In this document: piece by piece, positions 8,727 through 17,125 of the stretch | How positions within the stretch are numbered: the stretch's first letter is position 1 | Layout of the letters: the number at the start of each line of letters is the position of its first letter | NCBI RefSeq assembly: GCF_001895925.1 | Contig: NZ_MPPI01000002.1 | Location: 92,095-156,094, forward strand | Source: Phormidesmis priestleyi ULC007 | Lineage (GTDB): Bacteria > Cyanobacteriota > Cyanobacteriia > Leptolyngbyales > Leptolyngbyaceae | DNA length: 64,000 nucleotides | Reading direction: 5' to 3' | Notes under the pieces: generated by a model | Told to the model about the DNA's origin: nothing | The model's database searches: none | Seen by the model: only the letters and a program-made list of their open reading frames with translations | Program-made: the position numbers and the translations under genes

Positions 8727-9866
8727 TCACACCAAACAATCTTTCAAACTGTAAACAACCTGGTCTTGCTGCTCGATCGACAGTTCTGGAAACATCGGCA
8801 GAGACAGCACCTCATGGGCAGCCCGATCGGACACAGCTAACTGTCCTGGCAGATAACCCAGCGAGTGATAAATCGGTTGCAGGTGCAATGGCAATGGGTA
8901 ATAAACCATTGAGTTGACTCCCTTTGCCTGAAGTTGAGTACGGACGCGATCGCGCAGCAGTTCCTCGCCTTCAGGTTGACTCAAATCATCCACAATTCTG
9001 ACGGTGTATTGATTCCAGACGGGGCGACCGTTAGCAGGCACTTGAGGGGTCACCACTCTAGAAATGGGCTGAAGGAGTTGATGATAGCGATCGGCAACGA
9101 CTCGACGCTGATCGTTCCAGCCATCGAGATAGCGCAGTTTGATCTGCAAAATGGCTGCCTGCATTGCGTCGAGTCGGCTGTTGACTCCAAACTCTTCGTG
9201 ATAATAGCCGCTCCGTCGCCCGTGATCGCGCAGCATTCTTAACGTGGCGGCGATTTCCGGATCATTCGTGGTGATTGCGCCGCCGTCGCCACAAGCGCCT
9301 AAATTTTTGGTCGGGTAGAAGCTAAAACAGCCAATCTGCCCAAAGCTGCCGACTTTTTGACCTGCCCATTCTGCACCCGTTGCCTGAGCGCAATCTTCGA
9401 TCACGGCTAGGTGATGAGCGTTGGCGATCGCCATCAACCGCGTCATATCCGCTGGCTGCCCAAATAAGTGGACGGGAATAATCGCTTTTGTGCGAGGGTT
9501 AATCGCCGCTGCGATTTGACTCAGATCTAAGTTAAACGTCTGCGGATCGATATCGACAAAAATTGGCGTAGCTCCGACTGCGCTGATCGTTTCGCCTGTG
9601 GCAACAAAAGTGAAAGGCGTGGTGATCACCTCGTCTCCGGCTCCAATCTTTAAGGCGCGGAGTGCCAGATAAAGCGCATCGGTGCCAGAGTTGCACGACA
9701 CGCACTCAGAAACCCCCACATAACCAGCAAGCTGTTTCTCAAACGTTTCGACGATCGTGCCGCCAATATAGCGACCAGAGGCAAGCACATCTAAAACCGC
9801 TTGATTAATCTCTTCACCGATGATTTTATACTGTTCTGACAGGTCAAAAGGGGGGATGATATTCAC
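8727..9866 (-). CDS. DegT/DnrJ/EryC1/StrS-family PLP aminotransferase
   Basis: The 379-aa fold-type I aminotransferase carries the PLP-binding lysine in SFYPTKNLGACGDGG and the cofactor-phosphate motif SGTDAL near residue 60. The FTFVATGETI and HLFGQPADM blocks are typical of sugar aminotransferases acting on nucleotide-linked keto-sugars for polysaccharide or glycan synthesis. The substrate cannot be read from the sequence. It is a single gene, divergent from the FetB-like gene. Confidence 0.88.
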   Translation of the reverse strand: MNIIPPFDLSEQYKIIGEEINQAVLDVLASGRYIGGTIVETFEKQLAGYVGVSECVSCNSGTDALYLALRALKIGAGDEVITTPFTFVATGETISAVGATPIFVDIDPQTFNLDLSQIAAAINPRTKAIIPVHLFGQPADMTRLMAIANAHHLAVIEDCAQATGAEWAGQKVGSFGQIGCFSFYPTKNLGACGDGGAITTNDPEIAATLRMLRDHGRRSGYYHEEFGVNSRLDAMQAAILQIKLRYLDGWNDQRRVVADRYHQLLQPISRVVTPQVPANGRPVWNQYTVRIVDDLSQPEGEELLRDRVRTQLQAKGVNSMVYYPLPLHLQPIYHSLGYLPGQLAVSDRAAHEVLSLPMFPELSIEQQDQVVYSLKDCLV

Positions 9867-10006: not shown

Positions 10007-10771
10007 ATGGATTTACTGATTCGACTTCCCTGGGCGCTGGGGCTGATTTTAGCAGCGATCGCGCTTTCATCTTGGCAAAAGCTCGGCTTAGAAGGCAGCT
10101 TGGCACTCGCGGCAGGGCGAACGATCGCCCAACTCACCGTAGTCGGCTACTTTTTGGGGGTCGTGTTTGCCTTCAAAAGTCCTTGGGCGGTGTTGGCGGT
10201 TTTAGGGGGAATGCTCATCGTTGCGTCGATCGTAGCTCGCAATCGCATCAGTCAAAAGATTCCTCGCTTGCTGCCGTTGATTGCTGGCTCGATTTTAGTT
10301 AGCACTGCTCTGACGTTGACCTACACCAGTTTGCTGATTGTGCAACCACAGCCCTGGTATGATCCGCAGACGGTGATTCCCCTCGCGGGCATTGTGTTGG
10401 GCAACGCAATGAATGGAGCGGCGATCGCGGGCGATCGCTTGGTCAGCACGCTTAACTCTAGTCAACTCGAAATTGAGACGCATCTCAGTTTGGGGGCAAC
10501 TCCTCAACAAGCGGTGGCGCAATATCGCCGAGATGCCATCAAAGCGGGGTTAATTCCGACTATCAATTCGATGATGGTGGTGGGGCTGGTGACGCTTCCT
10601 GGAATTATTACAGGTCAACTGCTGGGTGGGGCAGATCCGATCCAGGCGGCGGCGTTTCAGATGTTGATTTTGTTTATGTTGGCGTTTGCCACGTTGCTGA
10701 CTACAATACTCGTGACCCAGGGGTTGCTGCGACAGTTTTTTAACCAGGCGGCGCAGTTGATTCTGTGGTGA
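10007..10771 (+). CDS. fetB: FetB-type (UPF0014) ABC transporter permease
   Basis: The 254-aa membrane protein has about seven predicted spans and the UPF0014/FetB hallmarks: ETHLSLGATPQQAV followed by AGLIPTINSMMVVGLVTLPG and GQLLGGADP. In E. coli FetB works with the ATPase FetA to export iron. No fetA-like ATPase gene is adjacent, as in many cyanobacteria where the partner is elsewhere. The ATG at 10007 starts the first hydrophobic helix. Confidence 0.85.
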   Translation: MDLLIRLPWALGLILAAIALSSWQKLGLEGSLALAAGRTIAQLTVVGYFLGVVFAFKSPWAVLAVLGGMLIVASIVARNRISQKIPRLLPLIAGSILVSTALTLTYTSLLIVQPQPWYDPQTVIPLAGIVLGNAMNGAAIAGDRLVSTLNSSQLEIETHLSLGATPQQAVAQYRRDAIKAGLIPTINSMMVVGLVTLPGIITGQLLGGADPIQAAAFQMLILFMLAFATLLTTILVTQGLLRQFFNQAAQLILW

Positions 10772-10882: not shown

Positions 10883-11644
10883 TTGAATCCTTATCTCAAG
10901 CGTTCCGTTCCGTCAGTCTTTAAAGGCATCGCTCTGTTTACGCCCGGTGGAGATTTGGTCTATTGCATCGACCCCGGCAAACAAGGACGGTGGCACTTAA
11001 ACCTGTGTGCGACATTACAGGAAATTTTAGAGCTACCTGAACCGCCCCATTTTTTAGTGCCTTGCTATACGGCGACGCTCGATCGCTGGCTTGATTCTGC
11101 CACTCGACAAGTGAGAACTTTTGCCGAAGCCTATCCGCTCGTCTTTCGCTATCGGGCGCTATTAGATGCCGTGTTTGAGACTCAGCACATCAACTGGCAG
11201 ATCGCACCCTTACCAGAAGAGGTCTGCGAACCAGCGCTGCTGGCCACCTATCGAGCGCAGTTTCCCCAACTTTGGGAGAGCCACGATTTGGTGATTCGAG
11301 TTGACAGCCCGATCGAGCGCCCCGAATCTGCTCATCGTCCTGCGATCGCGTTTTCTCAAAATTACACTCAGGGCTATGTGTTGCGGCTGTTTGTGTCGGG
11401 CTATAGTGCAGCAACTCAGCGAATTTTAGAGAACTTGCATCAACTCTTAGAAGAGTCGCTCAGTCACCCTTATACACTGAAAGTAATCGACATTTTTACA
11501 CACCCAGAACAGGCAGAAATCGATCAGGTTTCGGCAACTCCAACGCTGGTCAAGGTTTATCCGCGCCCAGTGCGACGAATTGTGGGAGACCTCAACGATG
11601 TCAATCGGGTGTTGCGAATGTTGGGAGCGCCAGGTGAAAGATAA
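10883..11644 (+). CDS. KaiB-like domain protein with a 130-residue N-terminal extension
   Basis: The C-terminal ~90 residues (from [11 protein letters not shown]) match the KaiB thioredoxin-like fold: [32 protein letters not shown]. The VGDL tail holds the Gly and Asp at the positions that control fold switching in KaiB. The N-terminal half ([21 protein letters not shown]...) is a separate unrecognised domain, so the protein is 253 aa rather than about 105. Translation appears to start at TTG 10883, since no ATG or GTG precedes the conserved beginning. Ten bases separate its stop from cofH, so the two are probably one transcript. A clock role is not established. Confidence 0.8.
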
Positions 11645-11654
11645 AGGGCAAACG

Positions 11655-12827
11655 ATGAACGTCACAGAGATTCTAGAACGAGCGATCGCAGGCGATGACC
11701 TGTCGCCTGAAGCAGGGGTAGTGTTGCTGAAGCAAACTGAGCAGGGGAAGATCGAGCAAATTCGCGACACTGCCGATCAACTTCGACGACGACAAGCGGG
11801 CGAAACAGTGACTTACGTGATCAATCGCAATATTAACTTCACCAACATCTGTGAGCAACACTGTAGCTTTTGTGCATTTCGACGAGACAGTGGAGATGAA
11901 GGCGCTTATTGGCTCGATCGGGCACAAATCTTAGAAAAGACCACTGATGCGGTCGATCGTGGAGCAACTGAGATTTGTATGCAGGGTGGCTTAAACCCAG
12001 AGGCGCAGATTAACGGGGCATCGCTCCCCTATTACTTAAAAGTGATTGAAACGATTAAATCTGAGTTTCCTGATCTGCATCTCCACGCATTTTCGCCGCA
12101 AGAAGTCGAGTTTATCGCCCGAAAAGATGGCTTGACGTTTGCAGAAGTGATTGTTGCACTGCGAGAAGGCGGAGTCGGTTCGATGCCCGGAACGGCGGCT
12201 GAAGTGTTAGACGACGAAGTGCGGCGAATTCTTTGCCCTGAAAAGATCAACTCAGAAACCTGGTTAGAAATTGTCAAAACCACCCACCAGCAAGGACTCC
12301 CCACCACTAGCACGATGCTCTCAGGGCACATCGAAACCCCAAAGCAGCAGATGCGACACCTAGAATTGATCCGATCGCTCCAACAATCTGCCAAAACCCA
12401 CGGCTACACAGGGATCACTGAATTTATTCTGCTGCCATTCGTCGGGCAAGAAGCGCCAAAACCTCTACGTCGGCGAGTCGGACGCGATCAGCCCGTTCTC
12501 TCTGATGCCCTCTTGCTGATGGCAGTCGCCCGGATCTTTCTAGGTAACTGGATTCCCAATCATCAGCCAAGTTGGGTCAAACTGGGGCTAGAAGGAGCCG
12601 TAGAAGCGCTGCAATGGGGTTGTAACGATATCGGCGGCACCCTGATGGAGGAGCACATTACGACGATGGCAGGCGCTTTGGGCGGCACCTGTATGGAAGT
12701 GGAGACATTGCAACAAGCGATCGCAGCGATCGATCGTCCGCATCAGCAGCGAGATACGCTTTACAGAAAAGTGGTCACAAAGTCGCCCATGATCAGACAG
12801 AAAGCTGGCACTTTGACAAACCCCTAG
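11655..12827 (+). CDS. cofH: CofH, F0 synthase subunit 2 (radical SAM)
   Basis: CofH joins 5-amino-6-ribitylaminouracil to a tyrosine-derived radical in making 7,8-didemethyl-8-hydroxy-5-deazariboflavin (F0). The radical-SAM cysteines are C66, C70 and C73 (CEQHCSFC). [12 protein letters not shown] and [12 protein letters not shown] are typical of the MqnC/CofH group. The start at ATG 11655 is chosen; the longer frame overlaps the KaiB-like gene. The 390 aa suit CofH. CofG is not in the window. In cyanobacteria F0 is the antenna of 8-HDF photolyases, which fits phr at 2580-4034. Confidence 0.9.
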
Positions 12828-12894
12828 CAAGATTCATAAAGAACGTGCATACTTTCTAAGTGATCACGGCGTTGCTAACATTTTTCTGCTATTG

Positions 12895-14682
12895 ATGAAA
12901 GCCAAAACTAAACCTCGATCGCAAAAGCTTCTTCTGTTGCTAACACTCGGAGCCTCTGCTCTTCTCATTGGTGGCGGAGCGGTGACTTATTGGCTGGTGT
13001 CTCGGCAAGGGCGCTTGAGCGTTATGCCAGTCGGCGCGAATGTCGTTCCTCAAGATGCGCTGATGGTCGTGTCAGTCTCGACCGAGCCAAGTCAGTGGGA
13101 GCGGCTGCGATCGTTTGGCACTCCTCGCAGTCAAGCCGCTTTTGACCAAAATTTGGCGCAGTTGCGCGATCGCTTTCTCACCAGCAAAGGGCTAGATTTT
13201 CAGCGAGATGTGCAGCCCTGGGTGGGCAAAGAAGTGACGCTGGCGTTTTTATCACCTCAGTTAGGAGTGTCGGTGCCCGCTCCGTCTCAGCCCGCTCTAC
13301 CTGCCAACCCTGAACCGACGGTGATGGTGCTGCCGATCGCTAATCCCGCCAAGGCAAAAGAGATTTTAGATCAGTCTTCAGCCACTAAGACTGGTCGGTG
13401 GTCAGTCCGCAAATATAAGGCCGTAGACGTTCGCGAAATGCTGGGCACCCCGGCGCAAAGTGTGTCGATCGCCGCGCTAGATACCCAGTTGGTCGTTGCA
13501 ACAACTCCAAAGGCGATCGACCGAGCGATCGACACTTATAAAGGGGGCAAAGCGCTCTCTGGCACTCCCGGTTATGGGAACGCTTTAGAACAGATTAAAG
13601 CCGAGCAATCTTTGGGAAGTGTGTATGTCAATATTCCTGCACTGGTTAACTCGTCGTCGGCAAACTCTAATCGTCCAGTGCCGTCCCAAGGGTTGATGAA
13701 CCAGCTTCAGCAAAACCAAGGGCTTGCTGCCACGGCAACGATCGAGCCTGACGGCATTCAATTTAAAACGATTTGGTGGCTGACTCCCAACAGCAAGCAA
13801 CGGTTTGAGGGCAGAAACACCGCCAAGATCATGCCAAGTCGTCTTCCAGCAGAGACACTAAGAATGGCATCCGGCGGGGACTTAAAGCAATTTTGGCAAG
13901 AGTTTACCCAAGGGGCTTCTTCAAGTTTGGTGCGCTATATTTTTCCGCAGGGACTATTGAGCAACCCAGAAAAGCTGCGCCAGGGAGTCAAATCATCAGT
14001 GGGTTTAGATCTAGATCAAGACTTGCTTAACTGGATGCAGGGAGAATTTGCGATCGCGCTGATTCCGTCTCCTCAAAAATCGTCATCCCCTTCACCGACC
14101 AGTTTGGTATTTATGGTGCAAAGCAACGATCGTCGCAGCGCAGAAAAAACGCTAAAACAGCTAGACGAAGTGATGGCAAGCAAATATACCTTTAAAGTCG
14201 AGGACGCAAAAGTTGAGGGTCAGTCGGTGGTCAACTGGTCGCTGCCAACGGGGGATATCAGCGTGACTCACGGTTGGCTAGATGGCGATGTCGCATTTCT
14301 CAGCCTCAATCTGGGGGCTTCTGCGGCTCCGAGCTTCTTACCAAAGCCTGCAAATTCGCTAGCTGAAAATGAAGCGTTTAGAAAAACGACCAAAACCACG
14401 CTAGAGCAGAATAATGGGCACTTCTTTATGGATGTCGATCGCGCCCTCAGCCTCAATAATTTCTTCCCATTACTGCAATTGCCCCCAATGAATCGCATGG
14501 TGCTAGAAGCCACAAAATCGATCGGGGTCACATCGGCTGTGACGAGCGATCGCACTACTCGTTACGACATTTTTGTCACCTTGCAAAAAGGCAATCAGCC
14601 TGGAGTGTTGCCTAGCCCTAGTGCGTCTCCGAGCGGGGGTGCTAGTCCATTACCCCTTCCTTCAGCGTCGCCGTCTCCCTAG
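12895..14682 (+). CDS. DUF3352-type exported protein
   Basis: The ATG at 12895 follows a TTG by three bases and is the likelier start. The protein (595 aa) opens with a charged N-terminus and one hydrophobic segment (about 10-35) that acts as signal or anchor. The long soluble region begins with the VVPQDALMVVSVSTEPSQW type sequence of DUF3352 proteins. The C-terminus is a Pro/Ser-rich tail (about 570-595). DUF3352 proteins are widespread in cyanobacteria with unknown function. It begins 68 bases after cofH and could be on the same transcript. Confidence 0.75.
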   Translation: MKAKTKPRSQKLLLLLTLGASALLIGGGAVTYWLVSRQGRLSVMPVGANVVPQDALMVVSVSTEPSQWERLRSFGTPRSQAAFDQNLAQLRDRFLTSKGLDFQRDVQPWVGKEVTLAFLSPQLGVSVPAPSQPALPANPEPTVMVLPIANPAKAKEILDQSSATKTGRWSVRKYKAVDVREMLGTPAQSVSIAALDTQLVVATTPKAIDRAIDTYKGGKALSGTPGYGNALEQIKAEQSLGSVYVNIPALVNSSSANSNRPVPSQGLMNQLQQNQGLAATATIEPDGIQFKTIWWLTPNSKQRFEGRNTAKIMPSRLPAETLRMASGGDLKQFWQEFTQGASSSLVRYIFPQGLLSNPEKLRQGVKSSVGLDLDQDLLNWMQGEFAIALIPSPQKSSSPSPTSLVFMVQSNDRRSAEKTLKQLDEVMASKYTFKVEDAKVEGQSVVNWSLPTGDISVTHGWLDGDVAFLSLNLGASAAPSFLPKPANSLAENEAFRKTTKTTLEQNNGHFFMDVDRALSLNNFFPLLQLPPMNRMVLEATKSIGVTSAVTSDRTTRYDIFVTLQKGNQPGVLPSPSASPSGGASPLPLPSASPSP

Positions 14683-16049: not shown

Positions 16050-16862
16050 CTAATTCAAATCCACAACCTCCAATTGGTATTGGCTGACATAGCTCAACGT
16101 AATCCCACACTTATCAAGATCTGGACTATTTTTATAATCTTCGGGAAAATCTTTAGGAAAATAGAACGTCGCCTCATCATATCTAAAGGATAAAACTATG
16201 GGTCTTGTTTCTCCAGCTTTCAAATTCTTAACTCTACCAATATTATCTACAAATTGACTCCCTTTTAAACTCTGACAAATAGGCAGAAGGTTGGAACCTT
16301 CCTTAGGGTATATTCCCCAACCAGATACAGTGCCTTTGACTTTAATTGAAAATTCTTTTACATCAATATTGCTTGTATTTGTTACTGTTCCGTCAAATGT
16401 AGAAAAGTCTGAACCTTTAACTACTCTTGCGTTGAGTTCGATATCCTCTGGCTTCGGTTTCAATTCAGATGTATAAGAGGGCGATTGAGGTGATTCTGTT
16501 GATGCTTCAGAAGAGGGAGTTGGGGATGGAGAAGGGGATGGTACAGAAGAATAAGGCGTTATAGAAGATTGAGGTGATTCTGTTGATGCTTCAGAAGAAG
16601 GAGTCGGGGATGGAGAAGGGGATGGTACAGGAGAATAAGGCGTTATAGAAGGAGGTATGGATGAATTTTCTTGAATGCGAGATTGTATCTCTTTTACGCC
16701 AGTCTTCGCTCCAAGTCCAACCATTCCCGATACAAAAAAGATGAGGAAAAGATTGGATAGGATAACGACCCAATTACCAGCTTCAATGTTGACTTGAAGA
16801 TACCGAAAATAATCTCGACCAACTTGAATCAGATCTCGACCTGCATTCCCTTTTTGAGACAC
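16050..16862 (-). CDS. membrane-anchored Pro/Ser-rich protein with tandem 28-residue duplication
   Basis: The start chosen is GTG 16862: it follows the previous gene's stop and has AGGGGAAAT at good spacing, while longer versions overlap the upstream gene. N-terminal VSQKGNAGRDLIQVGRDY leads into one membrane span (about 35-58). A Pro/Ser/Thr linker follows, holding two near-identical 28-residue units (SITPYSPVPSPSPSPTPSSE...), and then a C-terminal domain of about 120 residues (GTVTNTSNIDVKEFSIKVKG...) that looks like an FxLYD/CARDB-like beta-sandwich. Function unknown. It is likely co-transcribed with the 83-aa protein upstream. Confidence 0.65.
   Translation of the reverse strand: MSQKGNAGRDLIQVGRDYFRYLQVNIEAGNWVVILSNLFLIFFVSGMVGLGAKTGVKEIQSRIQENSSIPPSITPYSPVPSPSPSPTPSSEASTESPQSSITPYSSVPSPSPSPTPSSEASTESPQSPSYTSELKPKPEDIELNARVVKGSDFSTFDGTVTNTSNIDVKEFSIKVKGTVSGWGIYPKEGSNLLPICQSLKGSQFVDNIGRVKNLKAGETRPIVLSFRYDEATFYFPKDFPEDYKNSPDLDKCGITLSYVSQYQLEVVDLN
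16483..16650 (-). repeat. 84-bp tandem duplication inside a coding sequence
   Basis: 16483-16566 and 16567-16650 are near-identical 84-base units differing at a handful of positions, encoding the Pro/Ser-rich linker of the 16050-16862 protein. The high identity indicates a recent slippage or unequal-crossover event. Confidence 0.9.
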
Positions 16863-16873
16863 GGCTATTTCCC

Positions 16874-17125
16874 CTATGGCTTTGTCGTTCTTTCTGTTGA
16901 GGTCGAACCGGGTTGGGGTGAAGACTGTTGAGGATTTCCTGAACCAGTAAGCCATCCAGAATTCACTGCCCAGGCTAATCCTCCTGAAGCCAAAACACCA
17001 AATAGAAAAAATGGAATCCAAACATTGACTCGTGTAGAGGCAATTTTATTTCCGCCAATTACCTCTGCATTCCTTCCTGCTTTTACTTGTTGAACAGGTC
17101 TTTCATCAGGTCGATTGTTTGTCAT
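16874..17125 (-). CDS. small single-span membrane protein, AGRN/VIGGNK motif
   Basis: ATG at 17125 is preferred over an upstream TTG. The 83-aa product has VQQVKAGRNAEVIGGNK at its N-terminus, one membrane helix (about 35-57) and a short Ser/Thr/Pro tail. The N-terminal motif parallels QKGNAGRDLIQVGRDY in the next protein. Such AGR(D/N) motifs occur in cyanobacterial signalling and effector-associated proteins, but no function can be assigned. The next gene starts 12 bases downstream. Confidence 0.55.
   Translation of the reverse strand: MTNNRPDERPVQQVKAGRNAEVIGGNKIASTRVNVWIPFFLFGVLASGGLAWAVNSGWLTGSGNPQQSSPQPGSTSTERTTKP

What the first reader, a model, noticed from the sequence alone, without database searches (positions are those of the whole stretch)
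10883..12827. KaiB-like fusion protein in an operon with cofH
Seen: a 253-aa protein with a KaiB-fold C-terminus (retaining the VGDL fold-switch region) and an unknown N-terminal domain lies 10 bases before cofH. Inference: possible link between a clock-type protein and deazaflavin supply for light-driven repair, or a KaiB-derived redox/thioredoxin role.
Basis: partly seen in the sequence, partly recalled or inferred. Interest (0 to 1): 0.5.

Follow-up and report, generated by a model that had tools for sequence, protein, structure and literature searches.

The report
KaiB-4 protein, ancestral pilus-motor neighbour
The gene is a widespread but unstudied cyanobacterial relative of the clock protein KaiB; its neighbour cofH is a local arrangement, while in nearly all examined cyanobacteria outside this family that have the gene it sits directly behind a pilus-retraction motor gene, which points to a possible link between the daily clock and cell-surface pili.

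Summary
In detail: window 10883-11644 encodes 253 aa (TTG start) with a KaiB domain at residues 168-248, ending 10 bases before cofH. The protein is not new: it is the 'elongated KaiB', KaiB-4. The KaiB domain of its Thermosynechococcus ortholog was solved by NMR (8UBH) in the fold-switched, thioredoxin-like state; the conserved N-terminal domain has no known function.

The cofH pairing is local: 28 of 39 KaiB-4 genomes of the window's family, 0 of 41 outside it. The widely conserved neighbour is pilT2, a PilT-type pilus ATPase: upstream in 40 of those 41, and in 11 family genomes as pilT2-kaiB4-cofH. The window's lineage has separated kaiB4-cofH from pilT2. The open-access library searched shows no mention of this linkage.

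KaiB-4 lacks G89 and D91 (0 of 43; KaiB-1 21 of 21) but keeps much of the half that contacts KaiC. Best guess: a permanently binding-competent KaiB domain reads a RecA-like ring (KaiC, or PilT2 itself) and acts on pilus retraction. Deazaflavin and thiol-redox readings lack support. Against coupling: some genomes keep KaiB-4 without pilT2 beside it, and PilT2 shows no residue signature of KaiB-4 presence.

The parts
10883..11644 (+). KaiB-4 (elongated KaiB), 253 aa, TTG start
   Evidence: phmmer best PDB match 8ubh, E 2.1e-22
10919..11290 (+). conserved N-terminal domain (about residues 13-136); 23 invariant and 16 nearly invariant positions in 29 orthologs
   Evidence: the 80 listed of 407 genome-contig hits all bear cyanobacterial titles; no significant Pfam or PDB relative; AF2 model of moderate confidence, pLDDT 64.8, pTM 0.56
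11384..11626 (+). KaiB domain (residues 168-248); positions of G89 and D91 of KaiB-1 are changed and the C-terminal tail is short
11655..12827 (+). cofH, FO (8-HDF) synthase subunit; lineage-specific downstream neighbour
   Evidence: adjacency counted
10007..10771 (+). UPF0014 / FetB-like permease; upstream neighbour in the relocated kaiB4-cofH arrangement
   Evidence: FetB equivalog TIGR00245 146.1 bits, below its cut-off of 410
8727..9866 (-). DegT/DnrJ-type aminotransferase (name recalled from the sequence, no family search run); same block in relatives
12892..14682 (+). DUF3352 protein, downstream neighbour in the relocated arrangement

Best explanation
SHOWN: the protein is KaiB-4, an ortholog of the elongated KaiB of cyanobacteria, whose gene lies directly behind pilT2 in nearly all genomes sampled outside the window's family; in the window's lineage kaiB4, with cofH behind it, stands apart from pilT2. 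SHOWN for an ortholog by others: the KaiB domain rests in the thioredoxin-like, fold-switched state, the state in which KaiB binds KaiC. SHOWN HERE by sequence: G89, D91 and most of the tail of KaiB-1 are gone across the family, and the lateral KaiB-KaiB contact residues are eroded. INFERRED: pilT2-kaiB4 is the older order. INFERRED: KaiB-4 is a permanently binding-competent reader that docks through its KaiB domain on a hexameric RecA-like ATPase ring, most likely the CI ring of KaiC (as SasA does), and through its cyanobacterial N-terminal domain affects the second pilus-retraction motor PilT2, so that pilus retraction (motility, phototaxis, surface behaviour) is coupled to the state of the clock. 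INFERRED: the cofH neighbour shares only transcription.
For: pilT2 directly upstream on the same strand in 41 of the 42 other genomes, 40 of 41 outside the family; 61 of 80 genome-contig loci, with 6 more cut off upstream (these loci partly come from the same genomes). 42 of 43 KaiB-4 genomes have a pilT2 ortholog. Partner identity: proline-rich N-terminus, and apart from the canonical pilT beside a 684-aa PilB-like frame on C62 in G000; the review PMC12288463 describes PilT2 by that proline-rich N-terminus (passages). Fold-switched state of the T. vestitus domain (PMC10808063, passages). G89 and D91 in 0 of 43 KaiB-4 against 21 of 21 KaiB-1; G89A/D91R are changes used in fold-switched KaiB (PMC6378743, passage). 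In the C-terminal half, which forms most of the KaiC interface (same passage), P63, L65, P70, P72 and G78 are kept in 43 of 43 and R74 in 37. KaiC in 42 of 43 KaiB-4 genomes. Clock control of pilus biogenesis and competence in S. elongatus (PMC7125226, passages).
Against: Gene order does not show contact. KaiB-4 is kept where pilT2 is missing from the neighbourhood: L121, L154 and L157, whose other neighbours are conserved, and L112, L122 and L160 (whether these genomes hold pilT2 elsewhere was not tested). G051 has KaiB-4 and no pilT2 ortholog at E 1e-100. In 17 of 39 family genomes, the window's among them, kaiB4-cofH stands without pilT2 beside it. 17 of 21 KaiB-4-negative class genomes keep pilT2. 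No position in the last 360 residues of PilT2 separates KaiB-4-bearing genomes (42) from lacking ones (16 of 17 recovered) at my thresholds. KaiC is near-universal (63 of 64 class genomes), so its presence tests little. Most pil genes of S. elongatus are themselves clock-expressed, so no post-translational coupler is required. The full-length AF2 model failed (pLDDT 56).
Confidence: 0.4

Rival explanations
1. KaiB-4 is a dedicated regulatory subunit of the PilT2 hexamer and needs no KaiC: the KaiB domain has moved from one RecA-like ring to another.
For: Widespread pilT2 linkage; eroded lateral KaiB-KaiB surface, R23 in 20 of 43 and K26 in 11 of 43. Other cyanobacterial pilus-motor interactors are known, and Slr0845 homologs lie mostly next to pilBTC (PMC12288463, passage).
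Against: The C-terminal half stays close to KaiB-1; KaiB-4 without pilT2 in G051; no PilT2 residue signature.
Confidence: 0.2
2. KaiB-4 works only on the clock, as a competitor or modulator of KaiB-1 and SasA on KaiC; linkage to pilT2 reflects shared expression time.
For: KaiC in 42 of 43 KaiB-4 genomes; fold-switched state of the ortholog (PMC10808063); kept where pilT2 is not beside it.
Against: Not linked to kaiBC in the own genome, where that locus lies on another contig; does not explain why linkage to pilT2 has been kept so widely.
Confidence: 0.2
3. One reading: KaiB-4 acts with CofH in deazaflavin supply for light-driven DNA repair.
For: kaiB4-cofH adjacency in 28 of 39 family genomes, 17 of them without pilT2 beside it; the 12 of these 17 that were in the tree form one clade with support 96.
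Against: 0 of 41 KaiB-4 genomes outside the family have the pair; 10 family genomes have pilT2-kaiB4 without cofH behind it; KaiB-4 without CofH above cut-off in G051, cofH without KaiB-4 in 16 class genomes; cofG unlinked.
Confidence: 0.05
4. A KaiB-derived thioredoxin-like redox protein.
For: Thioredoxin-like fold of the ortholog's domain (8UBH); C42 of the N-domain in 42 of 43.
Against: No CxxC in 43 of 43; no Cys in the KaiB domain in 36 of 43.
Confidence: 0.03

Closest known systems
Elongated KaiB / KaiB-4 (Schmelling 2017 PMC5520375; Wayment-Steele 2023 PMC10808063, PDB 8UBH, WP_011056401.1)
   Same: Same ~250-aa layout: conserved ~150-aa cyanobacterial N-terminal extension plus KaiB domain close to KaiB-1; best PDB sequence match.
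   Different: The passages read mention neither pilT2 nor cofH; 'pilT' has 0 hits in the main text of PMC5520375; PMC10808063 was not searched for these words. The window's copy is apart from pilT2.
SasA
   Same: A KaiB-homologous domain with a thioredoxin fold that binds KaiC, fused to an effector (PMC6769508, passage).
   Different: SasA carries a histidine kinase; KaiB-4 has an unknown N-terminal domain. The own genome has a separate KaiB-domain protein in a 410-aa frame (L002), taken here for SasA from its length and domain only.
KaiB-1 (clock protein)
   Same: Same domain; K43 and the ATPTL / P-P-RR-G core.
   Different: KaiB-4 lacks G89 and D91 and has a short tail, and A41 is T in 41 of 43.
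PilT2 of cyanobacteria
   Same: The conserved genomic neighbour; proline-rich PilT paralog.
   Different: A separate protein; its own role is unsettled (PMC12288463, passage).

Membership tests
Elongated KaiB / KaiB-4 | About 150-aa N-terminal extension conserved in cyanobacteria | tested here: met
   orthologs at 42-67% identity over nearly the full length; the N-domain occurs in 100 of 386 genomes, 99 with open frames of 240-331 aa and 1 broken (G187)
Elongated KaiB / KaiB-4 | C-terminal KaiB domain | tested here: met
   PF07689 93.1 bits, cut-off 27
Elongated KaiB / KaiB-4 | KaiB domain rests in the fold-switched state | not testable with these tools
   Shown for one ortholog by NMR (PMC10808063); sequence marks agree; my AF2 model was too poor to tell
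KaiB-1 (core clock KaiB) | Equivalog score of TIGR02654 | tested here: not met
   80.8 bits against 145.3
KaiB-1 (core clock KaiB) | G89 and D91 and the C-terminal tail, as in KaiB-1 of 21 genomes that also hold KaiB-4 | tested here: not met
   G89 and D91 in 0 of 43 KaiB-4 against 21 of 21 KaiB-1; no residue at KaiB position 97 in 40 of 43
KaiB-1 (core clock KaiB) | Binds KaiC | not testable with these tools
   much of the C-terminal half is conserved
CofH | Equivalog-domain score TIGR03551 | tested here: met
   411.9 bits, cut-off 374.1
Thioredoxin-like redox protein | CxxC active site | tested here: not met
   0 of 43 orthologs
PilT2 (the partner) | PilT family score, proline-rich N-terminus, apart from the pilB-pilT locus | tested here: met
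   own copy 460.1 bits (cut-off 319.1) on C30; the highest-scoring PilT is on C62 next to a 684-aa PilB-like frame; naming follows PMC12288463
ADF/gelsolin-like fold (N-domain) | Structural match | tested here: inconclusive
   Foldseek best E 0.085, VIA-align Z up to 3.9 on a model of pLDDT 64.8

The most novel reading that the evidence does not exclude
KaiB-4 is a physical clock-to-pilus coupler: a KaiB domain fixed in the KaiC-binding fold, fused to a cyanobacterial adaptor domain that controls the PilT2 retraction motor, giving post-translational circadian gating of pilus retraction and explaining both the unassigned KaiB-4 and the unassigned PilT2.
Probability: 0.2. Interest if true: 0.85.

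Novelty: new member of a known kind. Interest (0 to 1): 0.55.

Why it matters
Two conserved cyanobacterial proteins of unsettled role, KaiB-4 and PilT2, prove to be genomic neighbours in nearly every KaiB-4 genome sampled outside the window's family. That gives a concrete, testable link between the Kai clock and type IV pili, and a possible reason for keeping a KaiB domain in the fold-switched state. It also corrects the reading of the cofH pairing as the main clue.

Tried and rejected
Deazaflavin link as the main explanation: rejected because the pair is confined to the window's family in this sample and is labile there. A plain 'pair not conserved' verdict: also rejected, since 28 of 39 family genomes keep it.

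AF2 of the full protein (36 sequences): pLDDT 56, not used. AF2 of the N-domain (74 sequences, 86% mean column identity): pLDDT 64.8; Foldseek and VIA-align gave only weak ADF/cofilin- and gelsolin-like arrangements (best E 0.085; Z under 4), not interpreted. I had looked for a Roadblock or Longin fold; none is named in the rows shown, which excludes nothing. The viral-contig scan found no relative. The profile search of PDB sequences gave only weak hits (best E 0.046), as did Pfam for 29 members (best E 0.03).

Co-variation test of PilT2 against KaiB-4 presence: no discriminating position. Caveats: 16 against 42 sequences, fixed thresholds, no correction for phylogeny; L228 gave no hit and was not pursued; G033, G045 and G135 have two pilT2-like copies each and only one was taken (for G033 and G045 the lower-scoring one). 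The same call found one very weak KaiB-4-like match near pilT2 in a KaiB-4-negative genome (L222, E 0.019), and varied longest frames behind pilT2. Promoter and terminator scan: numbers near chance.

Paper searches for the linkage: KaiB with cofH 0 papers, KaiB with PilT2 0, KaiB with words beginning pilT 16, none on this subject by title; of these I read passages of PMC7125226 and PMC4858521, which discusses KaiC-like ATPases and KaiB-like partners of archaeal pili. The 2024 Sci Adv paper on circadian oscillation of pili (PMC10807798) is not held and was seen only as a reference title.

Full report
WHAT IS THERE. Window 10883-11644 (+) encodes a 253-aa protein from a TTG start; relatives L084-L088 begin with the same TTG-AA(C/T). 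Pfam finds one domain above threshold, KaiB, at residues 168-248. The next gene, cofH, starts 10 bases after the stop codon and passes the CofH cut-off. Upstream are a UPF0014/FetB-like permease and, on the other strand, a DegT-like aminotransferase (name recalled); downstream is a DUF3352 protein.

IT IS A KNOWN, UNASSIGNED PROTEIN. The best PDB sequence match is 8ubh. Passages of PMC10808063 show this to be the KaiB domain of a Thermosynechococcus 'elongated KaiB', called KaiB-4, whose N-terminal domain is of 'unknown homology and function'; by NMR its major state is the fold-switched, thioredoxin-like one, and it is monomeric. PMC5520375 (passages) described ~250-aa KaiB proteins with a ~150-aa N-terminal extension highly conserved in cyanobacteria and found no homologs elsewhere.

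DISTRIBUTION. Of 146 genomes drawn from the phylum, 66 match the query at E 1e-6, but only 43 carry the full-length protein; the rest match by the KaiB domain only (sorted by hand). In a draw of 386 genomes (which repeats many of the first) the N-domain occurs in 100; 99 have open frames of 240-331 aa, long enough for the fusion, and G187 has stops inside. In the window's family it occurs in 39 of 42 genomes; one of the three without it is the only other held genome of the window's genus, G175. A scan of bacterial and archaeal genomes gave 407 relatives; only the best 80 are shown, all with cyanobacterial titles.

GENE ORDER OUTSIDE THE FAMILY. I fetched up to 20 kb around the 42 non-window copies and clustered all frames. 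A ~429-aa PilT-type ATPase is upstream on the same strand in 41 of 42, 40 of them within 400 bases and one at 682. The exceptions among 43 are the window and L051 (G051). G000 and G060 belong to the window's family, so outside the family the figure is 40 of 41. cofH is next to KaiB-4 in 0 of those 41; the nearest case, G011, is about 35 kb away; G051 has no CofH above cut-off; G019's contig ends about 220 bases downstream of kaiB4. In the 80 genome-contig loci, pilT2 is upstream in 61 (60 within 700 bases, one at 2.3 kb), 6 are cut off upstream, and 13 lack it: 7 loci with kaiB4-cofH (L083-L089) and 6 others (L112, L121, L122, L154, L157, L160).

WHICH PILT. The window's genome has four PilT-family proteins above cut-off. 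The partner's ortholog is the C30 copy (mean identity 69% to the 41 partners, against 40-48% for the other three); it starts with a proline-rich stretch and has no kaiB4 beside it. The highest-scoring PilT, on C62, lies beside a 684-aa PilB-like frame. PMC12288463 (passages) defines PilT2 by a proline-rich N-terminus, calls the published Synechocystis phenotype doubtful, and speculates on a PilU-like role.

GENE ORDER WITHIN THE FAMILY (coordinates compared by hand; 39 genomes): pilT2-kaiB4-cofH 11; kaiB4-cofH without pilT2 beside it 17 (estimated gap about 0.3-0.5 kb in G146 and G156); pilT2-kaiB4 without cofH 10; neither 1 (G152). All 42 family genomes have pilT2 and 40 of 42 have cofH. In a tree of 45 proteins (30 family loci, 15 others), the 12 relocated copies included form one clade with support 96, consistent with one separation event for them; the other 5 of the 17 were not in the tree. 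cofH adjacency is scattered among the remaining family members. In L083 and G154, probably one genome, pilT2 is still about 2.7 kb away but inverted, with the aminotransferase and permease between, which looks like a rearrangement intermediate. I infer that cofH came to lie behind kaiB4 in this family and that kaiB4-cofH later parted from pilT2; the reverse order of events was not formally tested.

CO-OCCURRENCE in the 64 class genomes (counted by hand): KaiB-4 43, pilT2 59, KaiC 63 (E 1e-200; the one miss, G039, has KaiB-4). KaiB-4 without pilT2: 1 (G051). pilT2 without KaiB-4: 17. Neither: 4. KaiB-4 nearly always has pilT2 in the genome, but pilT2 does not need KaiB-4. KaiC is too common to test.

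THE KAIB DOMAIN. I aligned 43 KaiB-4 domains with 21 KaiB-1 (20 picked by hand in genomes that also hold KaiB-4, plus the window's own). KaiB-1 has G89 and D91 in 21 of 21, KaiB-4 in 0 of 43; nothing aligns at position 97 in 40 of 43 KaiB-4. G89A/D91R are changes used in fold-switched KaiB (PMC6378743, passage). The lateral contact residues named in PMC6769508 (passage) are eroded: R23 in 20 of 43, K26 in 11, E or D at 84 in 28. In the C-terminal half, which forms most of the KaiC interface (PMC6378743, passage), P63, L65, P70, P72 and G78 are kept in 43 of 43, R74 in 37 and R75 in 41. On strand b2, K43 is kept in 43 of 43 while A41 is T in 41; that these two contact KaiA and CikA is recalled. 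This fits a KaiB domain that is permanently competent to bind but less fit for the cooperative KaiB ring. It carries no thiol site.

THE N-DOMAIN. Twenty-three invariant positions in 29 orthologs, including KG-A-L-TP, WH, FL-P and the aromatics F98, W105, Y123, F127 and W131. There are no significant relatives in Pfam or PDB sequences. The AF2 model is of moderate confidence and its fold matches are weak; I draw nothing from them.

HOW IT MAY WORK. KaiB in the fold-switched state binds the KaiC CI ring, and SasA carries a KaiB-like domain for the same site (PMC6378743 and PMC6769508, passages). KaiC and PilT both form hexameric RecA-like rings (general knowledge). The simplest reading that uses all the facts is a SasA-like reader: the KaiB domain senses the ring state of KaiC, and the N-domain passes it to PilT2. 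The alternative is that PilT2 itself is the ring bound. Neither is shown. Clock control of pilus genes and competence in S. elongatus runs at least in part through gene expression (PMC7125226, passages).

AGAINST. Some Nostocales-type loci keep KaiB-4 where pilT2 has gone from the neighbourhood; G051 has no pilT2 ortholog; PilT2 carries no visible mark of KaiB-4 presence (with the caveats given under Tried and rejected); the pair is apart in the window's lineage; the genus-mate G175 does without KaiB-4. Linkage may reflect shared regulation only.

PRINT STATUS. In the open-access library no paper holds KaiB with cofH or KaiB with PilT2; 16 hold KaiB with words beginning pilT, most unrelated by title. 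Subscription papers were not searchable.

Noticed in passing
L004 (G000:C30:293983-294174): A fourth, weak KaiB-like frame (109 aa, 25.6 bits, below the cut-off of 27) in the window's genome, about 27 kb from the pilT2 copy on the same contig.
   Followed up: no
L121, L154, L157: pilT2 is missing from an otherwise conserved neighbourhood (UDP-GlcNAc-epimerase-like gene, small membrane protein, kaiB4; gene names recalled), while kaiB4 is kept.
   Followed up: partly
L149 (Nostoc carneum NIES-2107, AP018181.1): The pilT2-kaiB4 pair lies on a record titled plasmid1 (554 kb).
   Followed up: no
L136 and L158 (contig CASBRD010000153.1): Two KaiB-4 loci with pilT2 on one 59-kb contig, about 26 kb apart in opposite orientation; possibly an assembly duplication.
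   Followed up: no
G187:C1:1969535-1969946: A KaiB-4 N-domain with stops inside, in a 2.8-Mb genome: a decaying copy.
   Followed up: no
G014:C1, G024:C31, G027:C1, G030:C26, G048:C210, G064:C1, G074:C24, G093:C26, G129:C6, G145:C1: Tandem pairs of short KaiB-like genes a few hundred bases apart in several genomes, at 33-41% identity to the window's KaiB domain.
   Followed up: no
window 16050-17021 (-): Predicted protein with one hydrophobic stretch and repeated Pro/Ser/Thr-rich segments (PSPSPSPTPSSEASTESPQS).
   Followed up: no
G156:C148:11526-12527: cofH match in an open frame of 599 aa, longer than usual; a fusion or a long upstream frame.
   Followed up: no
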